A stretch of 64,000 nucleotides of DNA from contig JAJBTU010000007.1 in NCBI GenBank assembly GCA_020860715.1, forward strand, positions 1 through 64,000, read 5' to 3'. Both the position numbers and the translations under genes were made by a program. This document shows, in pieces, positions 10,932-24,702 of this stretch (the first letter of the stretch is position 1; every line of letters begins with the position of its first letter). The stretch comes from Clostridiales bacterium. GTDB taxonomy: Bacteria; Bacillota; Clostridia; Lachnospirales; Lachnospiraceae. A model generated the notes under the pieces. The model saw only the letters and a list, made by a program, of their open reading frames with translations, had not been told where the DNA came from and did no database searches.

Positions 10932-10960
10932 TTGAAACTTGTAGATAATAATGCTATTAT
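10932..10960 (+). promoter_or_regulatory. Promoter of the surface-protein locus
   Basis: TTGAAA (10932-10937), 17-nt spacer, TATTAT (10955-10960). Transcription from it would give a leader of about 120 nt before the ATG at 11087. Confidence 0.6.
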
Positions 10961-10966
10961 AAAAAA

Positions 10967-11086
10967 ACACAGAAAAATAGTTGTGAAAAATGGAGAAAAA
11001 CATATGATAAAAGCCCGCAAAATGCGGGAGAATAATTAAGATTTCGGGGGGGTATAGGGTAATGGACAACATTACCTTATATTAAA
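10967..11086 (+). promoter_or_regulatory. Structured 5' leader with two mini-ORFs and a G7 run
   Basis: The leader holds an 11-codon ORF (ATG 11004, stop 11037-11039, peptide MIKARKMRENN) with GGAG 8 nt upstream, overlapping a 6-bp hairpin CCCGCA/TGCGGG (11014-11028). Next come a run of seven G (11046-11052) and a 7-codon ORF (ATG 11062, peptide MDNITLY) whose TAA ends 1 nt before ATG 11087. A second hairpin, GGTAAT/ATTACC (11058-11076), covers that mini-ORF start. No ribosome site stands directly before 11087, so translational coupling to the mini-ORF is plausible. Confidence 0.4.
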
Positions 11087-11239
11087 ATGAAAAAGAATTT
11101 GCATCGAATAAGAAAAGGCCTGGCAATGCTCCTGGCGGCCGTGCTGTTATTTTCAGCCACGGATTTCCAGAACGATACAGTGGTTGCCGGGGGGGGTGAC
11201 AGAGACCGCAGCGGATGCGGACGGATCCGGCGATTCTGA
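11087..11239 (+). CDS. Signal-peptide fragment of the sortase-adhesin, frame 1 of a frameshifted gene
   Basis: The ATG at 11087 begins a classic export signal: MKKNLHRIRKGLAMLLAAVL followed by LFSATDFQNDTVVAGG. The frame then reads through the 8-G run and stops at 11237-11239 after 50 codons. Removing one G would continue it as VVAGGVTETAADADG, directly into the 1488-codon frame that follows. The fragment is therefore the 5' end of the next gene rather than an independent peptide. Confidence 0.75.
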   Translation: MKKNLHRIRKGLAMLLAAVLLFSATDFQNDTVVAGGGDRDRSGCGRIRRF

Positions 11240-14200
11240 ATCTGCCGTAAGCGTGGTTGAAACCGGCGATACGGGCGGCACGGCAGGAGCATCCGATGAG
11301 GCCGGCGATACAGGCGGCACGGACGGAACATCTGATGTGACCGGGGATGCGACATCGGATGAGGGTGAAACATTGCCATCTTCCGCTTCTGCGGAAGATA
11401 CGCCTGACGGCTCGGAGACAGAGAAGACAACCAGTTCTGAAACAAATACCGAAGACAAATCAGAGACAAATCCTGAGGAAGAATCTGAACAGACAGCAGA
11501 AAAATCGACAGAAGAACAGGTAAATAAGGACGGCGAAACGGGAGACGGGACGGAAGAGGATTCTAAGAGCGAATCTGAAAGCGAATCCGAATTGGCGACA
11601 GCATCGGAGGATGTGAACGAATCGGAGTCGGAAGCTGAATCAGAGACCGGGACGGAACCGGAAACAGAAAACGTAACAGAATCGGAATCTGAGCAGGAAT
11701 TTGAGACGGAGTCAGAGGAGAGTTTTTATGAAGCAGAGGTCGTGACAGATGAGGGGATCCGCGTGTCAGTCAGCGCGGCCGCCGGTGTGCTGCCCGCAAA
11801 CGCGAGACTGGTCGCGGAACTGATCGGGACAACCGACGATGATACCACGGATACAAGCGACCTTGAACAGACGCTTGACATTCACGAAGTAGAATACGAT
11901 GGCTTTATTGCGATCGATGTACATTTTGAAGACGAAGACGGAAACGAGCTGGAGCCGGATGGCGCGGTCGCGGTCTTTTTTGTGTTGCCCGAAGATCTGC
12001 TGCCGGAGGACGCGGACACGGAGAGCCTGTCCGTGCAGCATCTTGCCGAGGACGCGAATGGAAATGTAACGGACGTGGAGACCGTGGCGGCGGCAGATCC
12101 GGAGAACGTGGCAGCTGCAGATGCGGGAAAGGGAACGGATGGGACGTCTTCGAATGATTTGACTAGAGCAGAGAACGAAGAGACAGAGATCGGGACGGTA
12201 GGCGAAAGCGGGACGGAGATCGTGGCAGAGTTTGTCGTGGATGGATTTTCAACATTTACGGTTACCTATAAAACTTATTCATTCACAGCGATTTGTATTG
12301 ACACAGATGGAAATGTGATTGAAAAAGATATGGAAGCTACCACTACATCTCAATATTGGCGCTTGAGTGCTACAAATTCATCATATCTTTATACAAAGGA
12401 AGGAAATGCGGATCCATCAATTGAAGGCTATACTTATTTAAGAGCATCTTGCGCTTTAAGAGGTAAAGCCACTACTGCTCCTTGGAATGCTTCAATTAAT
12501 TATGTGATTTGTACGAGTGGAATATGGCGAGCTAATGCAATTAAAGTGGTGACATCCGCAGATGATGATTCTGTGGATTACACAGATGAGGATTCATCAG
12601 ATTCAAATTATTATGTTTATTTAATATATGAAAAAACGGATGAAGAGGAAACTGAAACAGAAACCGAGCCCGAGACGGAAGCTCTTACTGTTAATTATGT
12701 GAATTATGGCGAATCCGACTTGATAAGTACTGGTACAGTTACCCGCACCGTGGAAGAATGGGAAACAGAAACTCAATTGTTCGGCACGGGCGTTTCAAAC
12801 GATATTATTGTATCGCAGGAGGGATTGACCTATTTATGCACTGTGCTGACATCCTCTCTGGAGAATGCACTGAAAATTGATGAGTACTTAGGGACAGATA
12901 GTAATGGCTATTTGATTTCTAACACGACCTATGTTACGGCGAACTATATTCGATATAAAGATGGGAAGTGGCAATATTGCTCGAATACAAATACGCTGAA
13001 TGAAAACTACTGGAACCTTTTCCCGGAGGGCTATCAGGTCTATGTTATCTATACCTCTCCGGCAACTGTAACGTATGCGGACGGGTTTGGCTCAACTGGG
13101 AATCAGCCTTATTCTATGGATGTATCAACCACCAACAGCGGCGGTACGAACAGAACGGATATTGTAAATAAACTGAGCAGTTCTTCTATGATTCGGTACT
13201 ATTATGACAGTGATCCTGTTGCAACGGTGAATGGAACAGCCTATACGTTTGCCGGGTGGTGCCTGAAAACGGATGCGAACGGAAATGGTACGGGAGAATG
13301 CTACACCGCGAAAGAATTGCAAGGAGCGAGTGTGGCTCCAACTTACAAGATCACAAATGATGATGGGTCTATAACCTACAAGAACAAAGATGCCGAAGTT
13401 GAATATATTTTGACAATTACAAAAGATGGAAAAGAATATACCTATTCTTTATCTTCTCCGGATCTGATCTTCTATGCCCGCTGGGAAGCGACAGTGACCC
13501 TGACTGTGCAGGTGGTGTTTTCTGGCGCGTCTGCGGACATTGTGGCGGAATTAATTACTTCCGCGACCCGGTACGATTCGGTGGCGAGCTGGCCGACGGA
13601 TCTTTTTGGAATTGTGATCAGGAGTTATCGTTCAGATGCCGATTCGTCCGCAACAGCATTGAATAATTACAGTTTTTATCCAACAGAGGCGAACAGGGCA
13701 TTTTCTGTGTCTGACCTGACAGTGGATAATAGTGGCGATGTCATTTATACATATGATGTGGAGGTGGCATCAGGGGACTACTATTATGTCGGGGAAATCA
13801 ATTATGAGATGCGGCAGTATTCCGCAGTTTCGCAGGGCTATGTGGTTTATAAGACGGCGGATACAGATAAAACAGCCGTGGCTTCTTCAGGCGATTCGAC
13901 ATCGGCATCGAGTACGGAACTTTTCCTTGTAAATGTAGATACGACCATACAATTTGTGAATACCTATCAGGTGGATCATGATTTGATCCTGACTGCGGAT
14001 GCGAAACTGATCGATGATGCGGATAGGGAAACGCTGACAGAAGAGGAAGTGGGCGATTATACCTATCTTATTACAGCCACTTGCTCCTACCCGGACGGCG
14101 AGGACAGTACTTATCTGTCCACCGCGCAGCAGCTGCCCAAAGGCATTTATTCGGTTGTCAGTCTTGATGAGGATGGAGAGGAATCCCAGGCTGGTACGGA

Positions 14201-15650
14201 TGAGAACGGAGATTTGCGATCGGTGACATTTTATCGGACCTGGACTTCGTGTGGCGGATATACGGTATATACGACTACGGCGACGGTTACGGTAAAAGCA
14301 GGGGAAACGATCGCCATCAAACGTTTGCCGGGGTTTACCTATACGGTCAGCGAAGTGACAGACGATATTGAAGAGTTGTCCGGCGGATATGAATTCCAGT
14401 ACTATATTGCGGAACTCAGTGAAAGCACGAACAACTCGAAAAGCGCAGCTGAAACAAAAAATAACAGTGTGGAGGCGTCTCTTGTAAATGGCGACGCCGG
14501 GGTTACGATCACAAATTACTATTCTCATTCTGCGTATACACTGACGGTTACAAAGCTTGTCTGCAACCCGACGGGAACGACATATGGTGATGTGGATTCA
14601 TTTGCGTTTTCACTGACCGTGAAGGACAGTAATGGTACAGCTTATACAGAGAGTTTATCCGCGTCAAAAATCACATTAGAGACGGATGAGACAGCGAAGA
14701 AAATAGAGTCTCTTTCCCTTGTTTATGATGCGGAAAGTAAAGGGTATGGTTTTGAACTGGCAGACGGACAGAGTGTGGAGATAGCGATTCCATACGGTTA
14801 TACAGCGGAGGTCTCGGAGGCGGCATATTCTAATTACCTTACTACGTCAGAGATTGTGATGGCGACGGCCTCGACGGTTTACGATGACAACTCGGGAACA
14901 GAGGAACAGGCTTCATTAACGGAAGATCAGGATTCTTCTGCGGAGAGCCGCAATCAGCTTACCGTAAGTGATATTACAACAGATACGTCCATTGTTTATA
15001 CAAATACAAAGATGCTGACTGTGCCGACAGGTATAAACAGGGAGCGGCTTTCTGATGCGAGTGAAAGTGCCATAAAAGATAGTGACTCTGTAGTTGGCCT
15101 TATATCGTCAGACGAAGAACCGTATGTTGATTCGGTTGCGTGGATTACCATTGACGGTACGAATATCAGTTATCCGGTGGCGCAGGGCGAGGACAATATG
15201 GAATATGTAGATAAGGATATCGAAGGAAACTTTTCTTTATCTGGTTCAATTTTCCTGGACTGCCGGAATGCTTCGGATTTTTCGGACAGCTATAATATCG
15301 TCTATGGACACAACCTGGGAAATGGTCAGATGTTCAGTGACCTTTTAAAATACACAGATCAGGAATATTTTGAAACTCATACTTCAGGGAGTATTTGCAT
15401 GGCAGGTGAAACCTGTGCGCTGGAAATCTTCGCGTGCGCAGAGGTAAGCGCATATGATTCGGTGATCTATAATCCCCTTGCCTGGACTGCTGAAAACAGG
15501 GAAGAATTGTTAAATTACATAAGCGAAAATGCGGTACAGTTCGATGAAACGAAAAGCACAAACGAGGGTTCTGTGATTGCATTTTCCACATGTGTTTCTG
15601 AGGATACAGAGGAAAGAATTGTAGTATTTGGGTGTCTGTGCCGGCAGTAA
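11184..15650 (+). CDS. Large surface protein with C-terminal class B sortase domain, body frame
   Basis: 1488 codons open from TTG 11184; the natural N-terminus is probably the signal peptide at 11087 in the other frame. Residues 1-170 are an acidic Ser/Glu/Thr-rich stalk. About 175-360 is a beta domain ending VDGFSTFTVTY. About 690-780 is an InlB B-repeat-like unit (FAGWCLKTDANG...FYARWEA). About 1115-1240 is a Cna-B/FctA-like domain (YTLTVTKLVCN). Residues ~1330-1488 are a complete class B sortase: His1376 in VYGHNLGNG, Cys1470 in AFSTC and Arg1478 in EERIVVFG. There is no C-terminal anchor, so the N-terminal signal probably stays as a membrane anchor, as in ordinary sortases, which would hold the enzyme on a long stalk. 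The next gene encodes a giant protein with a sorting signal and is the obvious candidate substrate. Confidence 0.85.
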   Translation: MPGGVTETAADADGSGDSESAVSVVETGDTGGTAGASDEAGDTGGTDGTSDVTGDATSDEGETLPSSASAEDTPDGSETEKTTSSETNTEDKSETNPEEESEQTAEKSTEEQVNKDGETGDGTEEDSKSESESESELATASEDVNESESEAESETGTEPETENVTESESEQEFETESEESFYEAEVVTDEGIRVSVSAAAGVLPANARLVAELIGTTDDDTTDTSDLEQTLDIHEVEYDGFIAIDVHFEDEDGNELEPDGAVAVFFVLPEDLLPEDADTESLSVQHLAEDANGNVTDVETVAAADPENVAAADAGKGTDGTSSNDLTRAENEETEIGTVGESGTEIVAEFVVDGFSTFTVTYKTYSFTAICIDTDGNVIEKDMEATTTSQYWRLSATNSSYLYTKEGNADPSIEGYTYLRASCALRGKATTAPWNASINYVICTSGIWRANAIKVVTSADDDSVDYTDEDSSDSNYYVYLIYEKTDEEETETETEPETEALTVNYVNYGESDLISTGTVTRTVEEWETETQLFGTGVSNDIIVSQEGLTYLCTVLTSSLENALKIDEYLGTDSNGYLISNTTYVTANYIRYKDGKWQYCSNTNTLNENYWNLFPEGYQVYVIYTSPATVTYADGFGSTGNQPYSMDVSTTNSGGTNRTDIVNKLSSSSMIRYYYDSDPVATVNGTAYTFAGWCLKTDANGNGTGECYTAKELQGASVAPTYKITNDDGSITYKNKDAEVEYILTITKDGKEYTYSLSSPDLIFYARWEATVTLTVQVVFSGASADIVAELITSATRYDSVASWPTDLFGIVIRSYRSDADSSATALNNYSFYPTEANRAFSVSDLTVDNSGDVIYTYDVEVASGDYYYVGEINYEMRQYSAVSQGYVVYKTADTDKTAVASSGDSTSASSTELFLVNVDTTIQFVNTYQVDHDLILTADAKLIDDADRETLTEEEVGDYTYLITATCSYPDGEDSTYLSTAQQLPKGIYSVVSLDEDGEESQAGTDENGDLRSVTFYRTWTSCGGYTVYTTTATVTVKAGETIAIKRLPGFTYTVSEVTDDIEELSGGYEFQYYIAELSESTNNSKSAAETKNNSVEASLVNGDAGVTITNYYSHSAYTLTVTKLVCNPTGTTYGDVDSFAFSLTVKDSNGTAYTESLSASKITLETDETAKKIESLSLVYDAESKGYGFELADGQSVEIAIPYGYTAEVSEAAYSNYLTTSEIVMATASTVYDDNSGTEEQASLTEDQDSSAESRNQLTVSDITTDTSIVYTNTKMLTVPTGINRERLSDASESAIKDSDSVVGLISSDEEPYVDSVAWITIDGTNISYPVAQGEDNMEYVDKDIEGNFSLSGSIFLDCRNASDFSDSYNIVYGHNLGNGQMFSDLLKYTDQEYFETHTSGSICMAGETCALEIFACAEVSAYDSVIYNPLAWTAENREELLNYISENAVQFDETKSTNEGSVIAFSTCVSEDTEERIVVFGCLCRQ
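11189..11196 (+). repeat. Homopolymeric G8 tract at the signal peptide/body junction
   Basis: Eight consecutive G residues lie exactly where the signal-peptide frame and the adhesin body frame must be joined. Seven (or ten) G residues would give one continuous gene; eight gives a 50-residue truncated product. This is the geometry of slipped-strand phase variation, though a sequencing indel in a homopolymer would look the same. Confidence 0.75.
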
Positions 15651-15699
15651 AAACTGCTGGCGGCTTGAAACAGGATAGTTCAAAGAAAGGGACTCTCAG

Positions 15700-18600
15700 A
15701 TGAAAGATGGTTACAGGTTTCTTTTAAACCGGAAAAAATGGATTTGCTTTATTTCCCTGCTGTTTACGTTTATCATGTCATACATGACAGTGTTTTCAGT
15801 GGCAGCGGAGGAAGAACCGTCGGAATCGACACAGACAACTACAACCAGCGAAATTACATGGTCGGTAGAACGGGGGAATTCCGGTAATGAGATTATTTTG
15901 ACAGTGACGATACCGGAAGGATATTCTGCGAATACGGTAACTTTTACTGCAGATGAAGCGCATGCAGCAATAGAGAAGGCCGTAACCGATTTATCCTGGG
16001 ATTATCCGACTTCTCCGGGATATTCGGGAATCATTGAGGTCAGGATACAGAATGAGTCCGCGTATTCTTATTCTTATGAAGACGAGAGTTTTAAAATTAC
16101 CAGCACCGATGACCCGGAGTTTCAGCTGATCTATACAAATGATGTGGGCCATGTGAATGACACAAATATCGACCGCAGCGCGGATAATGCGATTTTGTAT
16201 CTTTTCGACACTTATACAGAGATCGACCTTTCCAGTATGACAAGTGAGGAAGACCGGGAAACAGCGAGCTATTACATCAGTGATGATTATTTGAATGGTT
16301 CGGAGGGCTTGTTAAGCCTGGGAGAATATTCGTCGCTTGATGATTTATATGTAAGCTATTATAACAGCGTCTCAGGCGGAACTGCGACAGGCCTGTCTGA
16401 TATTTCCTATAAGGATTTTTTCAGATATATTTTATTGCTCGATTTTACGAATTACGCGAATATTGCGACCGCCGAAACAAATGAGACGGTCTATAACTAT
16501 CTGGAAGACTATTTTAATAACCAATGCTTTCTGTTCAGAAAAAAGGGTAACTCCAGCTACTACACCAGCTTTGCTGACTGCGCGGGTAAATACAATTCTT
16601 CCGTGGATACTTTTGCCGGGACTTTTGCCGCGGCTTCATCGGCATCCGTGAAAGCCGGGACAATTGAGTTTAACATTGAATATACATACACATCCAATAA
16701 TTTTCAGGTATATCCATATGGATTCGATTTTACTTTTTTATTGACAAGAGACAGTGAGACGACTGTTTCCTCGATGCCTGCTGTGTCGGTGGCGGGAGAT
16801 TTTTCTTTCACAAAAATATTAGATATGTCAGAAGCGGCGGGGGCAAGCGTGCCGAATATCAGCTTTGAATATACGATTGAAGCGAGCGAGGCGGTTGAAG
16901 CTGAGACGGATACGGATGGAAATATAACAGCACAGGCTATTTATGCTGGTGTGTTCACAGATGTTTCTTCCACGGAATCTGAAACCGATGCGAATGGAGC
17001 CTCTGTCGTTAAGACGACTCAATATCCGCAGATCGGTACCGCCAACTTTACAACGGCCAGTACGGTTACTAAAGATCATGATACGGGCAGTTCTTATGCA
17101 ACCGCAAAGGTTGGAATTGATTTCTCAGGCGTAGATTTTTCTGAAAAAGGAGCGGGGATTTATCGATATGTTATTAAGGAAACAGACACGGCATATTCAG
17201 GTATTACCTATGACAGCAACCTCGTGCGGTACCTGGATGTATTTGTGGTAGAGGACTTAGAATCTTCCGCTTCAGCGGGAAAACCGGTCTACGTGATCCA
17301 GGCTTACCAGCTGTATTCCGCTTTGTCTGGAACGTCCAATGATGGGACACAGGAGACCGAAACTGAAAGCGGCACGGCAGACAGTCCGGAAGAAACGGAA
17401 GCAGACTCGTCTTCTTCTAAAAGCACCGGTTATACGAATCAGTACACGACCTATGATCTGACCGTGGCCAAGAGCTGCGCCACTGATACGGATACAGGCT
17501 TTGCTTTTACAATCAGCTTTTCCGGCGGACTGGAAGGGTCGGTTTTGTATTATTCCGTTTATGACAGTGAGAATGCAACGCAGAGTACAATGCAGAGTGT
17601 TACTCTGACAAAAATGGGAGATGTGTCGTCTTCTCCCGAGGCGAGGATTGCCATTACGCTGGCGGATTCGGATATCGTGACGATTACCGGCCTGACCTCG
17701 GATATCACGTACACAATCAGCGAGAGCGCGACCGGTTATACGGCGACCGCGGAAAAAACGGCTGCGACAACAGGCACGGTGGCTGTGACAGGAGACAATG
17801 GCGTCCTGACGCTTGCCGCGCAGACCATGGGCGAGTCAGACAATACGGTCACAGTGACGAATACTCGGAAGACTGGAACGATTACGGTTACAAAGGTGGA
17901 TGCTGACGATAACACAAAGGTGCTTTCCGGCGCAACGTTTACGCTGACAGACAGAAGCGGATCATTTGTGGCTGCGAAAACGACAGGTACTGACGGTACG
18001 GCGACGTTCAGCGGGCTGACGTGGGATACGTACACAATCACGGAGACGGCTGCGCCTACTGGATATAAACTGGATAGCGGCAATAGCTGTCCAGTAACGA
18101 TTAATGCGTCGACGGTATCCACGACGCAAACGGTTACTTTCAAAGATACGCAGACCAGCTTTACTCTGGATAAAGTGGATGCGGATGATACGGCAATTTC
18201 ACTGAATGATGTATCGCTGACCTTTAAAGGGACGACGGGTACAGTAACGGAAGGCTGGACGTTAGTCTGGAGCAGGAATTCGGAAGGGATTGAAAGCTAT
18301 ACGATTTCAGAAGGCGATACGGTTATATCTACTGTCAGTGGGACGAGTGCCAGTCCTTCCGTCGTGATTAAGGGATTGCCTGCCGGCACCTATACGATTT
18401 CGGAGACCACTGTGCCGGACGGCTATACAAAGGCAGATGACTTTACTCTGAAAGTAGAAGAAAATGGCAGTGTATCGGTTACATCTACGGCAGCTTCTGC
18501 CTCATCTTCAACAGGAGATGAGAATGTTTCATGCAGGTTAAATGAGCAGACGGGCGTGTATGAAGTTAAGGTAGTGGATGATACGTTCGATGTTACGGTA

Positions 18601-21600
18601 AAGAAGCAATCCTCACAGACAAGCAGTGTGCTTGGCGGGGCAGAATTTGTTTTATATCAGAAGACCGCGGATGATACATGGGAAGCGGTGACTGTAAAGA
18701 AATCGTCAGACGAAAATGTTTCGGTGACCATTTCGACCGGTTCGAATGATGGCCTTGCAGTCCTGAACAGCTTCTATGAAGAAACTGCGGTAATGAAGAT
18801 CAATGGCACTTACCGTCTTGTAGAGACGAAAGCGGCGGATGGCTATATCCTTCCGACAGATGCGGATGGAAATAAGCTGTATGTGGAATTTACGGTTGAA
18901 GCAGATGGAAGCATTCAGGCGTCATCAAATAGCACTAATTTCAAGGATCTGGTGACGGTTGACAGTGATAAAAATGTGATTACCGTTAAGAATGATCCTA
19001 TCAGCATTACCCTGACAAAGGTGGATGGCGGTTACGCGGATGGAACTGGTTTAACAGATTCCGATACCGTCTATTTGCAGGGGGTATCCTTCACCCTGTC
19101 GGATCAGACGGAAGGGTATTCGGAAAATAGTGTAACAGCGACAACAAATGAAGATGGACAGATCACGTTCGCAACAGATGTTTCCGATGAAAATGGCTTT
19201 AAGCTGATAGCGGGCCATATCTACACGCTTTTGGAGACGGCACCGACCGGTTACTATGGCATCGGCTCCGTAGCTGTTTCCGTTGATTCTGACGGCACCG
19301 TTTCGCTTGTAGGAACTTACATCGATTCTGACTATCTCACGAGCGTAACCGCTGCCGGAACATCAATTACTGTTGTCAATACGCGGGAAATAGGAACAAT
19401 TACGGTTACGAAAACAGATGAGACCGGAGAAACCGTGCTTTCCGGTGCTGAGTTTATGCTGTACAGGGTGACTGAGAACAGTGGGTCTGGTGAGACGGAA
19501 CAGACCATGATCGGTTCTCTGACAACCGGTAATAGCGGTACCGTGACGTGGAGTAATTTGGAGTGGGGTACGTATACGATTTCTGAGACGGCTGCTCCTG
19601 CTGGGTACACGCTGAACAGTAAAGAAAAAACGGTGACAATTGACGCAGACTCCGTTTTCTCAGGATATACTGTCACGTTTGAGGACGAACCAATTTTGTT
19701 TGTTTTGGTAAACTTTGATGGCCTCTATGATGGGACTGGAACCGGCATTATGTCGGCTGGAACATCCGGAACGGACGAGAGTGAGACATCGACAGGCGGT
19801 GTGACATTTACGCTGACTGAACTGAGTGCGGACGGGAAAGAAATAAGTGATAGTGTTCAGACCGCTGTGACGGATGAGAACGGAAAACTTACCTTCGGCG
19901 TAAGCGGTGGTACGAATGGATTTTCGGTTGCAGGCGGAACTGCCTATGTTCTGAAAGAGACGACCGTAACTGGTTATTATGAAATTGCTGAGATTATAAT
20001 AACCGTAAATACGGACGGTACGGTCACCATTGTATCCTCAGAGGATTCCGAAAATGGAGAGGAGGCCGGAGAGGAAACGAATCCATGGCCTGGATCGGAT
20101 TCAAATAAGAGCAGTGTAATCGTCACAAAAAATGATTCGGCTGTGGACGGTGGTGGAAATACCGTGACAGCGGGTGACACGATTGTCGTGACCAACATCC
20201 GTATCCCGGGTTCTGTCACACTCACGAAACTTGGCCTGTACAATGAGTCCTGTATCGATGTTACAGGGGAAGAGGCGGACGCGACACTGCCGCTTGCGGG
20301 CGTGACATTTACGGCGTACAGCAAACTGGAATATACAGATACGGATGAGACCTCGTCCGGCAGTGCGACGCTGTCCGGGGTGATCGGGACGGCGACCAGC
20401 GACGATAACGGACAGGTGTCCTTTACAAACCTGCCCTGGGGAACCTGCTACATTCAGGAGAGCGCAACGGCAGACGGCTATGCTCTTGATGATACGGTAT
20501 ATAAAGCGGAGATCGCGCTGGAAGGCGATACGGTAGTTACTACTGTGTCAGTGAAGGATGAGGATGGAGTATGGATGAAACTGACGGATACTACCATCAT
20601 CAACGATGTCTATCGTTCGGATTTCTCTTTCACAAAAGTGAGCGAGGAGGATTCGACGCAGGTGATCGCAGGCTCTACATACGGCCTGTACCGGCGCTAC
20701 AGCTCTGGAAGTTCGGGCTCTGCGGACAGTGAACTGACCCTGATCGCGACCTGCGTGTCGGATGAGAATGGCCTGGTGAGCTTCGAGGGTCTTTTGATGG
20801 ACGTGGAATACACCGTGGTTGAACTGGAAGCTCCTTCAGGCAGCTATGTCTCTGAGAATTCGATCAGTTTCAACTTTACGATTAACAGCCCGGATGGGAC
20901 AGTGACGACGAACTGGGTATCTACCGGCGAGGGGACGATTGAGCAGACGGAAGACGGACAGCTGGTCTGGAATGAGCCGCAGACTATCGTTTCCATCCTG
21001 AAGCTGGATGAGGATGGAAATGCCCTGGCGGGCGCAACGCTGCAGATACTTGCTGTGGATGCGGACGAAAACACAGATGACAGTGCAGATGAAACTGATG
21101 ATGGAAGTACAGATGGCAGCGCAGACGAAAATACGACTGAAACTGCAAACACAAACGCTGTAGTGATCGGTCTGGATGACGACGGCGACCCGGTTACGAG
21201 TTGGACGACTACCGGGGAAACGCTGGTGCTGACCGGAATTCTGAGCGCCGGGAAGACGTATAAGCTTGTAGAGCTGGATGCGCCGGAAGGCTATGCGGTT
21301 GCGGATCCGGTGACATTTACGGTTCCGGATGACGCACTTGAGCCGGGTGAAAATGAAACGCTGGAAGTTACGATGACGGATGAGCCGATGGCGATCGTGC
21401 TTACGAATTATGATGGAATGTACGATGGAAATCTGACCGGGGACAGTGATGTCCTGGAGAATGTGACATTTACGCTGACCGACCTGACAGACGGAACTAT
21501 CCAGACGGTCACGGCAAAGACGGATGAGAGTGGACAGATTTATTTTGTCAGTACGAACGGAGAGGACAGCTTCCGCGTGATCGCAGGGCATAACTATCTG

Positions 21601-24600
21601 CTGACAGAGGAAACTCTTGCGGGCTACTATGGTATCGGCGAGGTATACCTCACAGTCAATGCGGACCGGACGCTGTCCTTTACGAAAGGCAGCCATGACA
21701 GCGGGACGAAAAGCTATGTGACGATTGGTGCGGACGGACGAACGATCACGGTGGTCAATGTACGCATGACCGGCACGGTGATTCTGGCCAAAAAAGAGCT
21801 TTATCTGGAATCCTGCGCGCAGAAAACGGATAGCGCTGAAGACAACAGCGGGACAGCGAACAACAGCGGAACGGCGGACAACAACGGCACAGCCGATGCC
21901 CTGCGGGCACTCGCGGGCGTGGAGTTTACCCTTTATGCGGATGAGAAACTGGCTTCGGAAGTGGGTACCGCAGTCAGTGACGGATCCGGTCTTGTGATAT
22001 TTGAAGCTGTGCCGCTCGGGACTTATTATTTGCGGGAGACCGTGGCGGCGGGGAAGAACTATATTCTGGATGATACCGTGTATAAAGTCGCAGTCACGGA
22101 GGGCGGCACTACAATCTCGACGCTCTCGGGCGATGCGGTCACGGCGGCGGTGAATGACCAGGTGCGCTCAGATTTCTCTTTTACGAAGGTGAGTGAGGAG
22201 GATCCGACCCAGGTGCTTGCCGGGTCGACGTACGGACTTTACAAAAAAGACAGCTCCGGGGAACTGACGCTGCTCGCGACCTGTGTGTCCGACGAAAATG
22301 GTCTTGTGAGCTTCGCAGGGCTGTTCATGGACGTGGAGTATACGGTGATCGAGCTGGAGGAGCCGTCGGGCAGCTATCTGTCACAGAATTCGATCAGCTT
22401 TAACTTTACGCTCAACAGCTTAGATGGCACGATTACGACGACCCTGGTTTCCACCGGAGAAGGAACAATAAAACAGACGGAGAGCGGGCAATTGATCTGG
22501 CTTGAGCCGCAGACGATCGTTTCCATATTAAAGACAGATGGAGATGGAAAGGCTCTGGCCGGTGCGACGCTTCAGATTCAGGATGCGGACGGTGATCCGG
22601 TGCAGATTGGTATTGACGAGAGCGGCAGCGCGGTCACGAGCTGGGTGAGCACGGAAGAAGCGACTGTTCTTACTGGGATTCTGACGGCCGGAGAGACCTA
22701 TACGCTGGTCGAGCTGGCTGCCCCGGCGGGCTATATAATTGCGGAGCCGGTTGAATTTACGGTGTCGGATGAGAAGGTGGCTCCGAACGTGAATATTGCT
22801 GTGGAAGTCCGGATGGCGGATAAGCCTGTATCCATTATCATGAAAATCATTGACGGCCTGTACGACGGATCCGGGTCAGATGCGATGGGCGGTATTTCTT
22901 TCACACTGGTTCAGCTGGACGAAAGTGGGAAGGCTGTAGATGGAACCGAACAGAGTGCGTCTACAGATTCGTCCGGAAAGATCTGCCTGGGTGCTGCCGC
23001 CGATGACAACAGCTTTGCGGTAGTGGGAGGCCGGACCTACCTGTTGACGGAGCAGAGCATGGATGGTTATTATGAAGTATATTCTTTCATAATAACTATT
23101 GGGGAGGATGGCACGGTCAGCGTGCTGACCTTAGAGGACGGTTCTGTGTATTTGGATGAAGCGCATGGCACAAGCGTAAAGGTCAGCGGGGCAGGGACAG
23201 AGATCACAGTGAAAAATATCCGTATCCCGGGTTCTGTCACACTCACGAAACTGGGCCTGTACAATGAGACCTGTATCAATGTTACCGGGGAAGCTGCGGA
23301 CGCGGCAGTGGCGCTTGCGGGCGTGACATTTACGGCGTACAGCGAACTGGAATATACAGATATGGATGAGACCTCGTCCGGCAGTGCAACGCTGTCCGGG
23401 GTGATCGGGACGGCGACCAGCGACGATAACGGACAGGTGTCCTTTACAAACCTGCCCTGGGGAACCTGCTACATTCAGGAGAGCGCAACGGCAGACGGCT
23501 ATGCTCTTGATGATACGGTATATAAAGCGGAGATCGCGCTGGAAGGCGATACGGTAGTTACTACTGTGTCAGTGAAGGATGAGGATGGAGTATGGATGAA
23601 ACTGACGGATACTACCATCATCAACGATGTCTATCGTTCGGATTTCTCTTTCACAAAAGTGAGCGAGGAGGATTCGACGCAGGTGATCGCAGGCTCTACA
23701 TACGGCCTGTACCGGCGCTACAGCTCTGGAAGTTCGGGCTCTGCGGACGGTGAACTGACCCTGATCGCGACCTGCGTGTCGGATGAGAATGGCCTGGTGC
23801 GCTTTGCGGGTCTTCTGATGGACGTGGAGTATACGGTGATCGAGCTGGAGGAGCCGTCGGGCAGCTATCGGTCCGCGAACGCGGTCAGCTTTAATTTCAC
23901 GCTCAAAAGTCCGAACGGTACAGTGACGACAAACTGGGTATCTACCGGCGAGGGGACGGTCGTGCAGACGGATGAGGGAGATCTGATCTGGAATGAGCCG
24001 CAGACCATTGTCTCCATAGAAAAAGTGGATGAGGACGGCAATGCGCTTGCCGGCGCGACGCTGCAGATACAGGATGAGGATGGAAATGCGGCGGTGATTG
24101 GTCTGGATGGCAATGGCGATCCGCTCACAAGCTGGATCAGTACCGGGGAAACACTGGTGCTGACCGGAATTTTGAGTGCCGGGAAGACATACACTCTGGT
24201 GGAACTGGACGCTCCGGAAGGCTATGAAACAGCTGAACCAATGGAATTTACAGTGCCTGACGATGCTGTTTCGCCCGGAAAAGACACTACGATCACGGTA
24301 ACAATGGTTGACCGGCTTTCCCCATCCGATCCGACAACAACGGACGACCAGACGGAGCCATCCACTGGAAAGACAACGGAACCGGCGACTGAAAAGCTCA
24401 CGGAAGAAGTGACCGAAACGGCAGGTGAAGCGCAGACGGAAGCGCTGACAGAAACGATCACTGAGAACGAGACTTTATCTGAAACGGCAGTCTCTGGTGA
24501 GACAGAAGAAGAGACTGAGCCGCAGACCCTGACGCAGACAGAGACAGCGGCGGAATCCGGGACAGAGTCTGAGACGGAATCCGATACGGAGGACAGCGTG

Positions 24601-24702
24601 ACTACCGGAGATGAAATGCGGCCGTATTTCTGGATGAGCGTGATGCTGCTGTGTGCGCTGGCATTGTTGAAAGCAGGGAGCCGCCGCAGACAGAACAGGT
24701 AG
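15700..24702 (+). CDS. Giant SpaA/Cna-B repeat surface protein with C-terminal sorting signal
   Basis: 3000 residues. The signal peptide is residues ~1-36, cleaved near SVAA/EEE. About 365-545 is an FctA-type pilin isopeptide-linkage domain (YRYVIKETDTAYSGI). From ~720 to 2860 there are about a dozen SpaA/Cna-B units; many show the VTK lysine and ITETAAP-type glutamate used for intramolecular isopeptide bonds. They fall into families: GTITVTK (~725, 1229), GSVTLTKLGLYN (~1500, 2507), FSFTKVSEED (~1637, 2155, 2645) and QTIVSI(L/E)K (~1760, 2270, 2766). About 2870-2965 is a Thr/Glu-rich wall-spanning stretch. The C-terminus has VTTGDEM, a hydrophobic helix (FWMSVMLLCALALL) and the basic tail SRRRQNR, a non-LPXTG sorting signal. 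It starts 49 nt after the sortase fusion and is probably co-transcribed. Likely cell-wall anchored; the ligand is unknown. Confidence 0.9.
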   Translation: MKDGYRFLLNRKKWICFISLLFTFIMSYMTVFSVAAEEEPSESTQTTTTSEITWSVERGNSGNEIILTVTIPEGYSANTVTFTADEAHAAIEKAVTDLSWDYPTSPGYSGIIEVRIQNESAYSYSYEDESFKITSTDDPEFQLIYTNDVGHVNDTNIDRSADNAILYLFDTYTEIDLSSMTSEEDRETASYYISDDYLNGSEGLLSLGEYSSLDDLYVSYYNSVSGGTATGLSDISYKDFFRYILLLDFTNYANIATAETNETVYNYLEDYFNNQCFLFRKKGNSSYYTSFADCAGKYNSSVDTFAGTFAAASSASVKAGTIEFNIEYTYTSNNFQVYPYGFDFTFLLTRDSETTVSSMPAVSVAGDFSFTKILDMSEAAGASVPNISFEYTIEASEAVEAETDTDGNITAQAIYAGVFTDVSSTESETDANGASVVKTTQYPQIGTANFTTASTVTKDHDTGSSYATAKVGIDFSGVDFSEKGAGIYRYVIKETDTAYSGITYDSNLVRYLDVFVVEDLESSASAGKPVYVIQAYQLYSALSGTSNDGTQETETESGTADSPEETEADSSSSKSTGYTNQYTTYDLTVAKSCATDTDTGFAFTISFSGGLEGSVLYYSVYDSENATQSTMQSVTLTKMGDVSSSPEARIAITLADSDIVTITGLTSDITYTISESATGYTATAEKTAATTGTVAVTGDNGVLTLAAQTMGESDNTVTVTNTRKTGTITVTKVDADDNTKVLSGATFTLTDRSGSFVAAKTTGTDGTATFSGLTWDTYTITETAAPTGYKLDSGNSCPVTINASTVSTTQTVTFKDTQTSFTLDKVDADDTAISLNDVSLTFKGTTGTVTEGWTLVWSRNSEGIESYTISEGDTVISTVSGTSASPSVVIKGLPAGTYTISETTVPDGYTKADDFTLKVEENGSVSVTSTAASASSSTGDENVSCRLNEQTGVYEVKVVDDTFDVTVKKQSSQTSSVLGGAEFVLYQKTADDTWEAVTVKKSSDENVSVTISTGSNDGLAVLNSFYEETAVMKINGTYRLVETKAADGYILPTDADGNKLYVEFTVEADGSIQASSNSTNFKDLVTVDSDKNVITVKNDPISITLTKVDGGYADGTGLTDSDTVYLQGVSFTLSDQTEGYSENSVTATTNEDGQITFATDVSDENGFKLIAGHIYTLLETAPTGYYGIGSVAVSVDSDGTVSLVGTYIDSDYLTSVTAAGTSITVVNTREIGTITVTKTDETGETVLSGAEFMLYRVTENSGSGETEQTMIGSLTTGNSGTVTWSNLEWGTYTISETAAPAGYTLNSKEKTVTIDADSVFSGYTVTFEDEPILFVLVNFDGLYDGTGTGIMSAGTSGTDESETSTGGVTFTLTELSADGKEISDSVQTAVTDENGKLTFGVSGGTNGFSVAGGTAYVLKETTVTGYYEIAEIIITVNTDGTVTIVSSEDSENGEEAGEETNPWPGSDSNKSSVIVTKNDSAVDGGGNTVTAGDTIVVTNIRIPGSVTLTKLGLYNESCIDVTGEEADATLPLAGVTFTAYSKLEYTDTDETSSGSATLSGVIGTATSDDNGQVSFTNLPWGTCYIQESATADGYALDDTVYKAEIALEGDTVVTTVSVKDEDGVWMKLTDTTIINDVYRSDFSFTKVSEEDSTQVIAGSTYGLYRRYSSGSSGSADSELTLIATCVSDENGLVSFEGLLMDVEYTVVELEAPSGSYVSENSISFNFTINSPDGTVTTNWVSTGEGTIEQTEDGQLVWNEPQTIVSILKLDEDGNALAGATLQILAVDADENTDDSADETDDGSTDGSADENTTETANTNAVVIGLDDDGDPVTSWTTTGETLVLTGILSAGKTYKLVELDAPEGYAVADPVTFTVPDDALEPGENETLEVTMTDEPMAIVLTNYDGMYDGNLTGDSDVLENVTFTLTDLTDGTIQTVTAKTDESGQIYFVSTNGEDSFRVIAGHNYLLTEETLAGYYGIGEVYLTVNADRTLSFTKGSHDSGTKSYVTIGADGRTITVVNVRMTGTVILAKKELYLESCAQKTDSAEDNSGTANNSGTADNNGTADALRALAGVEFTLYADEKLASEVGTAVSDGSGLVIFEAVPLGTYYLRETVAAGKNYILDDTVYKVAVTEGGTTISTLSGDAVTAAVNDQVRSDFSFTKVSEEDPTQVLAGSTYGLYKKDSSGELTLLATCVSDENGLVSFAGLFMDVEYTVIELEEPSGSYLSQNSISFNFTLNSLDGTITTTLVSTGEGTIKQTESGQLIWLEPQTIVSILKTDGDGKALAGATLQIQDADGDPVQIGIDESGSAVTSWVSTEEATVLTGILTAGETYTLVELAAPAGYIIAEPVEFTVSDEKVAPNVNIAVEVRMADKPVSIIMKIIDGLYDGSGSDAMGGISFTLVQLDESGKAVDGTEQSASTDSSGKICLGAAADDNSFAVVGGRTYLLTEQSMDGYYEVYSFIITIGEDGTVSVLTLEDGSVYLDEAHGTSVKVSGAGTEITVKNIRIPGSVTLTKLGLYNETCINVTGEAADAAVALAGVTFTAYSELEYTDMDETSSGSATLSGVIGTATSDDNGQVSFTNLPWGTCYIQESATADGYALDDTVYKAEIALEGDTVVTTVSVKDEDGVWMKLTDTTIINDVYRSDFSFTKVSEEDSTQVIAGSTYGLYRRYSSGSSGSADGELTLIATCVSDENGLVRFAGLLMDVEYTVIELEEPSGSYRSANAVSFNFTLKSPNGTVTTNWVSTGEGTVVQTDEGDLIWNEPQTIVSIEKVDEDGNALAGATLQIQDEDGNAAVIGLDGNGDPLTSWISTGETLVLTGILSAGKTYTLVELDAPEGYETAEPMEFTVPDDAVSPGKDTTITVTMVDRLSPSDPTTTDDQTEPSTGKTTEPATEKLTEEVTETAGEAQTEALTETITENETLSETAVSGETEEETEPQTLTQTETAAESGTESETESDTEDSVTTGDEMRPYFWMSVMLLCALALLKAGSRRRQNR
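20200..20780 (+). repeat. Long intragenic direct repeat, copy 1
   Basis: This ~580-bp block inside the giant surface gene recurs at 23221-23801 with a constant offset of 3021 bp (1007 codons, in frame) and no indels. About 355 bp (near 20371-20727) are identical; differences cluster at the 5' end. It encodes the GSVTLTKLGLYN and FSFTKVSEED units. Confidence 0.9.
23221..23801 (+). repeat. Long intragenic direct repeat, copy 2
   Basis: Second copy of the block at 20200-20780, offset 3021 bp. The near-identity points to recent duplication or gene conversion. Recombination between copies would remove 1007 residues without breaking the frame. Confidence 0.9.

What the first reader, a model, noticed from the sequence alone, without database searches (positions are those of the whole stretch)
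11087..11239. G8 homopolymer places the adhesin signal peptide out of frame: candidate phase-variation switch
Seen: a perfect export signal starts at ATG 11087 and runs into eight G at 11189-11196, stopping at 11239. The 1488-codon sortase-adhesin frame is open across the same tract in the next frame. Seven G would join VVAGG to VTETAADADG seamlessly. Known: homopolymer runs of this length near the 5' end of surface genes switch by slipped-strand mispairing. Inferred: this copy is in the OFF state, or without export signal if TTG 11184 is used. A single-base assembly error is the main alternative.
Basis: partly seen in the sequence, partly recalled or inferred. Interest (0 to 1): 0.85.

Follow-up and report, generated by a model that had tools for sequence, protein, structure and literature searches.

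The report
Poly-G switch on a sortase-bearing adhesin
In a bacterium whose close relatives are labelled Lachnospiraceae, a run of eight Gs splits one predicted surface-adhesin gene, cutting its predicted export signal off from the rest of the protein, and because pilus genes of related species carry such runs both in and out of frame, the run is likely a reversible on/off switch, although switching itself has not been observed.

Summary
A syntenic ortholog in another species (G142, about 80% DNA identity here) reads signal and adhesin in one frame, so the window holds one split gene. Its protein ends in a class B sortase domain; the next gene encodes a 3000-aa SpaA-repeat protein with a sorting signal, the likely substrate. 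The best evidence for a switch is a sister locus: seven pilin copies from six species carry G6, G7 or G8 at the signal/mature junction, four in frame and three out of frame, this genome among the latter. Another adhesin of this genome is split inside its signal, and in-frame G7-8 tracts lie in hsdS and polysaccharide genes. Bifidobacterium breve has the same design with experiments behind it. Against: no reads or sister strains were available; the ortholog lacks a long tract at this position; clpB is also broken at a G8, so a single assembled length is not safe. Verdict: probable slipped-strand phase variation; a known mechanism in a new lineage, acting on an unusual adhesin-sortase fusion.

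The parts
10932..10960 (+). promoter-like site TTGAAA-17-TATTAT upstream of the gene
   Evidence: 10 of 12 consensus matches; 2 such sites found in the region against 1.0 expected in shuffles, so weak
11046..11052 (+). second G tract (G7) in the untranslated leader
   Evidence: a G6 run stands here in the ortholog leader
11051..11083 (+). leader hairpin of 14 pairs ending just before the start codon
   Evidence: z -6.0 for 10970-11110, folded without G142; a 9-pair hairpin folds in the G142 leader
11087..11239 (+). first frame: predicted export signal, out of register with the adhesin in this assembly
   Evidence: conserved and in frame with the adhesin in G142
11189..11196 (+). G8 tract at the signal/mature junction
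   Evidence: G4 at this place in G142
11184..15650 (+). adhesin-sortase frame (1488 aa)
   Evidence: residues 48-497 match the G142 adhesin at 58%
15129..15626 (+). C-terminal class B sortase domain (residues 1316-1481) with aligned His, Cys and Arg
   Evidence: TIGR03064 155.5 bits against a cut-off of 153.75, Pfam Sortase, 3psq E 2.7e-44, residues located
15700..24702 (+). next gene, 3000 aa: signal-like start, 15 SpaA stretches, C-terminal sorting-signal-like end; likely substrate of the fused sortase
   Evidence: 49 bases after the adhesin-sortase stop; signal and sorting signal judged by eye

Best explanation
A G8 tract splits one predicted adhesin gene between its predicted export signal and its mature part, and slipped-strand mispairing in the tract during replication would likely switch the protein on and off from cell to cell. 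Shown by sequence: the two frames are one gene in a syntenic ortholog; they are out of register in this assembly; the mature part ends in a class B sortase domain; tracts of this kind stand at the same junction of pilin genes in related species, in frame in some and out of frame in others. Inferred: with the frames out of register, translation stops after 50 codons, no protein is exported, and the following gene may lose expression by polarity; with the frames in register, the protein is exported and its sortase acts on the neighbouring SpaA-repeat protein, so that one tract governs both an adhesin and the enzyme that assembles or anchors its partner. The switch would be one of a set, with a pilin, another adhesin, hsdS and polysaccharide genes of the same genome.
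For: One gene: the G142 ortholog, 79.7% DNA identity over 1247 aligned columns, reads signal and adhesin in one 3057-aa frame. Sister locus: at the pilin signal/mature junction 7 of 9 loci read (of 30 returned) carry G6-G8; 4 in frame, 3 out of frame, six species. This genome's pilin aligns to its natural relative P0010 in two frames that meet at its G7. Same design in other surface genes: this genome's C29 adhesin, G008, G001 twice, and in frame in G028. G7 cuts a polysaccharide-locus protein inside PF04432; G7 lies in frame between the two specificity domains of HsdS. Frames broken at 6 of 16 coding G7+ tracts, at 0 of 20 scanned coding A8 tracts. Tract length differs between species at one homologous gene start: 7, 8, 9, 10. 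The G142 ortholog has its own in-frame G7 early in the same gene. Precedent with experiments: PMC9187656.
Against: No reads, colonies or second strain: the protein is a singleton in the database searched. clpB in the same assembly is out of frame at a G8, while 23 of 24 genus relatives searched have a close copy in an unbroken frame, so an assembled tract length may be wrong or slippage may simply damage genes here. The G142 ortholog has only G4 at this place, so the G8 is not conserved as a switch in the one ortholog found. A G8 is expected by chance in a window of this composition. The A8 control was chosen for open frames, and three flagged A8 tracts stayed unresolved; counted as breaks they reduce the contrast to p 0.12. 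mutS is intact, and mismatch repair would lower slippage.
Confidence: 0.7

Rival explanations
1. Assembly or sequencing error: the real tract is in frame and the gene is simply an expressed adhesin-sortase.
For: clpB is out of frame at a G8 in the same assembly; homopolymer counts in databases can be wrong, as PMC9187656 also warns.
Against: At the pilin junction three genomes, assembled separately, are out of frame and three are in frame; no split was demonstrated at the A8 tracts scanned; the tract itself, a slippage-prone run at the junction, would remain whatever its exact count.
Confidence: 0.13
2. Fixed loss: the tract grew once, the gene has been dead since, and the frame has not yet decayed.
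For: The ortholog has only G4 here; clpB seems lost by the same kind of change.
Against: 4.5 kb of frame and a complete sortase domain are still open; the sister pilin junction keeps tracts across species.
Confidence: 0.12
3. No DNA switch: RNA polymerase slippage or ribosomal frameshifting on the G run makes some full protein from the out-of-register gene.
For: Long G runs can make polymerases slip, a general argument also made in PMC9187656 for slippage-prone motifs.
Against: In-frame copies of the tract exist in pilins, which such recoding would not need; no frameshift stimulator was sought beyond Rfam, which gave no match.
Confidence: 0.03
4. The downstream frame is translated from TTG 11184 or GTG 11196 as a protein without signal.
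For: The database gene call starts at GTG 11196.
Against: No ribosome-binding sequence at a usable distance before either codon (by eye); an adhesin with a sortase has no known role in the cytoplasm (general knowledge); the ortholog has the signal in frame.
Confidence: 0.02

Closest known systems
Bifidobacterium breve UCC2003 sortase-dependent pilus loci bbr_0113 and bbr_1889 (Penno et al. 2022, PMC9187656; outline and abstract, sections 15, 21 and 22, and search passages read)
   Same: Sec signal and large surface protein in two frames separated by a G tract early in the first gene of a sortase-dependent locus; other G tracts in the genome, intragenic and in promoter spacers; polarity on downstream genes proposed there.
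   Different: Actinomycetota; LPXTG pilin with a separate dedicated sortase, whereas here the sortase is part of the split protein; slippage measured there, not here.
inlA poly(A) tract of Listeria monocytogenes (Orsi et al. 2010, PMC2831843; abstract read)
   Same: Homopolymer near the 5' end of a surface gene of a Gram-positive causes frequent, reversible frameshift.
   Different: Poly(A), a single gene, no sortase domain.
Poly-G phase variation of surface and restriction genes in Neisseria and Campylobacter (titles and abstract starts; details recalled)
   Same: G tracts in surface, glycan and hsdS genes as a repertoire of switches.
   Different: Gram-negative, outer-membrane targets, longer tracts as a rule (recalled).
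3psq, class B sortase structure (one search names it only Hypothetical exported protein; that it is the Streptococcus pyogenes pilus sortase is recalled)
   Same: Nearest solved relative of the sortase domain, with His, Cys and Arg aligned.
   Different: Stand-alone sortase (recalled); here the domain is the end of an adhesin.

Membership tests
poly-G replication-slippage switch of sortase-dependent surface loci (B. breve type) | export signal and surface protein in two frames that meet at a G tract | tested here: met
   one frame in the G142 ortholog
poly-G replication-slippage switch of sortase-dependent surface loci (B. breve type) | in-frame and out-of-frame lengths both occur at the same site | tested here: inconclusive
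   met for the sister pilin locus between species; for the focal tract only one copy is known, and its ortholog has a short in-frame run
poly-G replication-slippage switch of sortase-dependent surface loci (B. breve type) | length varies within one strain or population | not testable with these tools
   no reads, colonies or sister strains; singleton protein
poly-G replication-slippage switch of sortase-dependent surface loci (B. breve type) | tract length decides surface expression | not testable with these tools
   needs expression data or surface proteomics
class B sortase | family profile above cut-off and catalytic His, Cys, Arg | tested here: met
   TIGR03064 155.5 bits against 153.75, narrowly; residues aligned to 3psq
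class B sortase | stand-alone membrane enzyme with an N-terminal anchor directly before the catalytic domain (definition recalled) | tested here: not met
   about 1300 residues of adhesin precede the domain and no strongly hydrophobic stretch lies in the frame; hence a sortase domain in a fusion, not a typical SrtB
sortase-anchored (LPXTG-type) surface protein | C-terminal sorting signal with hydrophobic stretch and positive tail | tested here: not met
   the focal protein ends in the sortase domain; its neighbour has such an end (by eye)

The most novel reading that the evidence does not exclude
A Lachnospiraceae genus runs a poly-G phasome: independent slippage switches on pilins, giant adhesins, type I restriction specificity and polysaccharide genes give each cell its own surface, and in this species one switch also turns on and off the very sortase, fused to its adhesin, that assembles the neighbouring fibre.
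Probability: 0.45. Interest if true: 0.8.

Novelty: new variant of a known kind. Interest (0 to 1): 0.62.

Why it matters
Slippage switches are classic in Gram-negative mucosal bacteria (recalled) and have been shown in bifidobacteria (PMC9187656). Five searches of an open-licence library (listings seen) showed no paper that describes them in Lachnospiraceae, a major gut family (recalled). If real, surface proteins of these bacteria would be mosaic within a single strain, gene calls would misplace or lose export signals (as with P0003 and P0009), and work on single isolates would read one state of many. The adhesin-sortase fusion adds a new point of control: the assembling enzyme itself. Two searches for such fusions listed five papers and none; going by titles and abstract starts, none of the five describes one.

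Tried and rejected
Rfam match in the leader: none at gathering threshold. Plasmid match of the locus: none. A second strain through the protein database: only the window's own protein and four distant ones. Loss of mutS as a cause: rejected, a frame of 940 aa scores above the family cut-off; mutL was not searched. A poly-G habit special to this genus: rejected, G9 tracts occur in 71 of 97 genomes drawn from the order, some with over 100 matches. Clustering of G7 tracts as evidence: considered, weak, dropped. Automatic frame classes for 46 tracts sampled from relatives (7 intact, 9 broken?, 27 other, 3 beside masked bases) are rough: L132 was classed intact although its gene is split on reading, so no statistic is drawn from them. 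A NusG-like gene after the G8 of L034, suspected by eye, was not confirmed: the frame is only 34 aa. Family search on the three flagged A8 tracts: no match, unresolved. No structure prediction was made.

Full report
WHAT IS THERE. The window is contig C2, bases 1-64000, of a 2.67 Mb genome in 39 contigs. Its genus holds 47 genomes in the collection, this one included. All coordinates of the finding are right. The first frame has the look of an export signal (basic start, hydrophobic core, small residues before GG), but no predictor was run. The downstream frame is open for 1488 codons. Its database entry starts at GTG 11196, so it is annotated without a signal (P0003).

THE PROTEIN. Only its end matches known families: Pfam Sortase and TIGR03064 class B sortase at residues 1316-1481, 155.5 bits against a cut-off of 153.75. 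The nearest solved structure is 3psq, E 2.7e-44, with His, Cys and Arg aligned. The frame holds no strongly hydrophobic stretch, so export would have to come from the split-off signal. The next gene starts 49 bases downstream and encodes 3000 aa with 15 SpaA stretches, a signal-like start and a sorting-signal-like end. That the fused sortase acts on this neighbour is inference. Adhesin-sortase fusions recur: genus member G016 has two proteins of 1670 and 1646 aa with a signal-like start, a thioester domain, 8-9 SpaA stretches and a C-terminal sortase, with no G6+ run near the start.

ONE GENE, NOT TWO. Two searches with the downstream frame covered 60 genomes and 21 genomes, together all 46 other genomes of the genus. 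Most matches are to sortase domains alone; some weaker ones touch the adhesin part. One, G142:C117, matches the adhesin domain at 58%. Its DNA is 79.7% identical over 1247 aligned columns that include leader, signal and adhesin start, and it reads MKKNLHPIRKALAMLLAIALLFTAVDFQNFAVSAGETENTASAD in one frame with a 3057-aa protein. At the place of the window's G8 it has G4. So signal and adhesin belong together and the window copy is split. No sortase family was found in the G142 protein: it has 12 SpaA stretches and ends like the window's next gene. The stretch between the adhesin start and the SpaA repeats, with the sortase, therefore differs by gain or loss of a module. G142 carries its own G7 about 65 codons into the gene, in frame. 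Both orthologs thus have a long G run early in the gene, at different places.

THE SISTER LOCUS. The genome has 26 separate places with G7 or longer (8 with G8 or longer). I read the sequence context of 25; the second tract at C39 was seen only as frame lengths. Sixteen lie inside coding frames. In 10 the frame runs through: a GT4 glycosyltransferase, two proteins without family match that look like membrane proteins, a coenzyme F420 hydrogenase-like protein, HsdS with the tract between its two specificity domains, a repetitive protein without family match, a hexapeptide acetyltransferase, an ABC permease, a RACo protein and an MBOAT protein. In 6 the frame breaks: the focal gene, a SpaA pilin (C38), a SpaA/collagen-binding adhesin (C29), a polysaccharide-locus gene cut inside PF04432 (C18), clpB (C11) and, probably, one unknown gene (C4). 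For the pilin, the natural relative P0010 aligns to this genome in two frames that meet at the tract. That search covered 47 genomes, 29 with a match, and returned 30 loci. I read the junction DNA in 9 of them, the best-matching ones: 7 carry G6-G8 between signal and mature part. Four are in frame (G032, G026, and G140 twice, all G8). Three are out of frame (this genome and G013 with G7, G138 with G6). Two (L228, L232) have no tract. This is the strongest evidence: the same junction, several species, three lengths, both states. Similar tracts split or span surface genes in G008 (G8, out), G001 (two G9, out) and G028 (G9, in frame, 1625-aa open frame).

CONTROLS. A G8 is not rare by itself: 2.41 expected in shuffles of the window. 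A8 tracts of the same genome served as a control: 41 tracts in 40 fetched loci. Thirty-two loci had an open frame of at least 150 aa, and I scanned 20 of those 32 with Pfam: all 20 have one open frame across the tract, 19 with a family, 3 of them glycan- or envelope-related. Five A8 loci were flagged as possible breaks. Two of them, L189 and L216, have family-supported open frames; three stayed unresolved. Frame breaks at 6 of 16 against 0 of 20 give p 0.004; with the unresolved three counted as breaks, 6 of 16 against 3 of 23, p 0.12. The A8 set was chosen for open frames, which favours the contrast. Surface, glycan or restriction genes make up 9 (family-supported) to 11 (two by eye) of the 16 G tracts, against 3 of 20, p 0.014 to 0.0017 (labels by hand, after the fact). 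At one homologous gene start, six of the 16 matching genomes were read: G7, G8, G9 and G10 in G139, G032, G000 and G013; an interrupted or absent run in G026 and G008. The tracts change length quickly on the scale of species.

THE MAIN WARNING. clpB is out of frame at a G8. One search covered 24 other genomes of the genus. In 23 a copy at 93% identity or more over the 105-residue query lies in one unbroken frame of 665-919 aa; for G004 only a 71% match was found. None of the 29 relatives' copies read (23 of this genus, 6 of other families) has a G tract at that place. Either the assembly has a wrong count there, or slippage has hurt this strain. For that reason the OFF state of the focal gene in living cells is not claimed, only that the assembled copy is out of frame.

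MECHANISM. Shown: split gene, slippage-prone tract, in-frame relatives, sortase domain, gene order. Inferred: replication slippage as the agent, a mixed population, absence of export when the frames are out of register, polarity on the next gene, and the sortase-substrate pairing. B. breve UCC2003 provides the precedent: signal and pilin in two frames separated by a G tract, lengths variable in the population and shifted in mice, pilus-like structures seen when the frames were joined (PMC9187656; outline and abstract, sections 15, 21, 22 and passages read). That paper also mentions G tracts in promoter spacers. In the present genus many sampled tracts stand just before genes (by eye), some with similar flanks in different species and different lengths (G021 G9, G031 G11, G018 G9).

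LEADER. A G7 at 11046-11052 is followed by a 14-pair hairpin, including its last two Gs, that ends just before the start codon (z -6.0 for 10970-11110). A 9-pair hairpin folds in the G142 leader too, with a G6 run before it. A plausible but untested role is to bring the G run, acting as ribosome-binding site, close to the start codon; length changes there could tune translation.

JUDGEMENT. A probable phase-variable locus of a known kind (B. breve type) in a new lineage, with an unusual target: an adhesin that carries its own sortase. Searches for earlier reports in Lachnospiraceae or related gut Firmicutes listed none by title and abstract start; the library holds open-licence papers only.

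Noticed in passing
L032 1988-1995 (G000:C11:54387-54394): clpB is split at a G8 in this assembly, while 23 of 24 genus relatives searched have a close copy in an unbroken frame and the copies read have no tract there: wrong count or real damage.
   Followed up: partly
window 11046-11083: Leader with a G7 run and a strong hairpin that ends just before the start codon; a hairpin and a G6 run stand in the ortholog leader too.
   Followed up: partly
L086 1001-1007 (G000:C10:50431-50437): G7 in frame between the two specificity domains of a type I HsdS: a possible switch of DNA specificity.
   Followed up: no
L158 (G000:C18:1-12000): Polysaccharide locus (5 of 8 neighbours scanned are polysaccharide families) with two G7 tracts, one cutting PF04432 between profile positions 84 and 86, one in frame near the start of an acetyltransferase.
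   Followed up: partly
L275 1456-10626 (G142:C117) against window 11087-24702: One 3057-aa protein in G142 corresponds to two genes in the window; the sortase-bearing stretch is gained or lost as a module.
   Followed up: partly
L040 3855-8864 and L041 2258-7195 (minus strand; G016): Two thioester-SpaA-sortase fusion proteins with signal-like starts: adhesins that end in a sortase recur in the genus.
   Followed up: partly
L100, L101, L120; L110, L143: Poly-G runs of 9, 11 and 9 just before a start codon with similar flanks in three species, and a G9 with identical near flanks in G008 and G013: possible regulatory tracts.
   Followed up: no
L108, L123, L138, L148: Frames that break at G9-G10 in sugar dehydrogenase-like, methyltransferase-like, acyltransferase-like and phosphoglycerol-transferase-like genes of relatives (names by eye, no family search).
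   Followed up: no
L033 841-2532 (G000:C15): In-frame G8 joins a GT4 glycosyltransferase to the C-terminal part of a second one: tract-mediated fusion or misjoin.
   Followed up: no
G039, G052, G062, G074, G085, G091: Some other families of the order have about 70 to 400 G9 matches per genome (overlapping matches counted), far more than most genomes of this genus.
   Followed up: no
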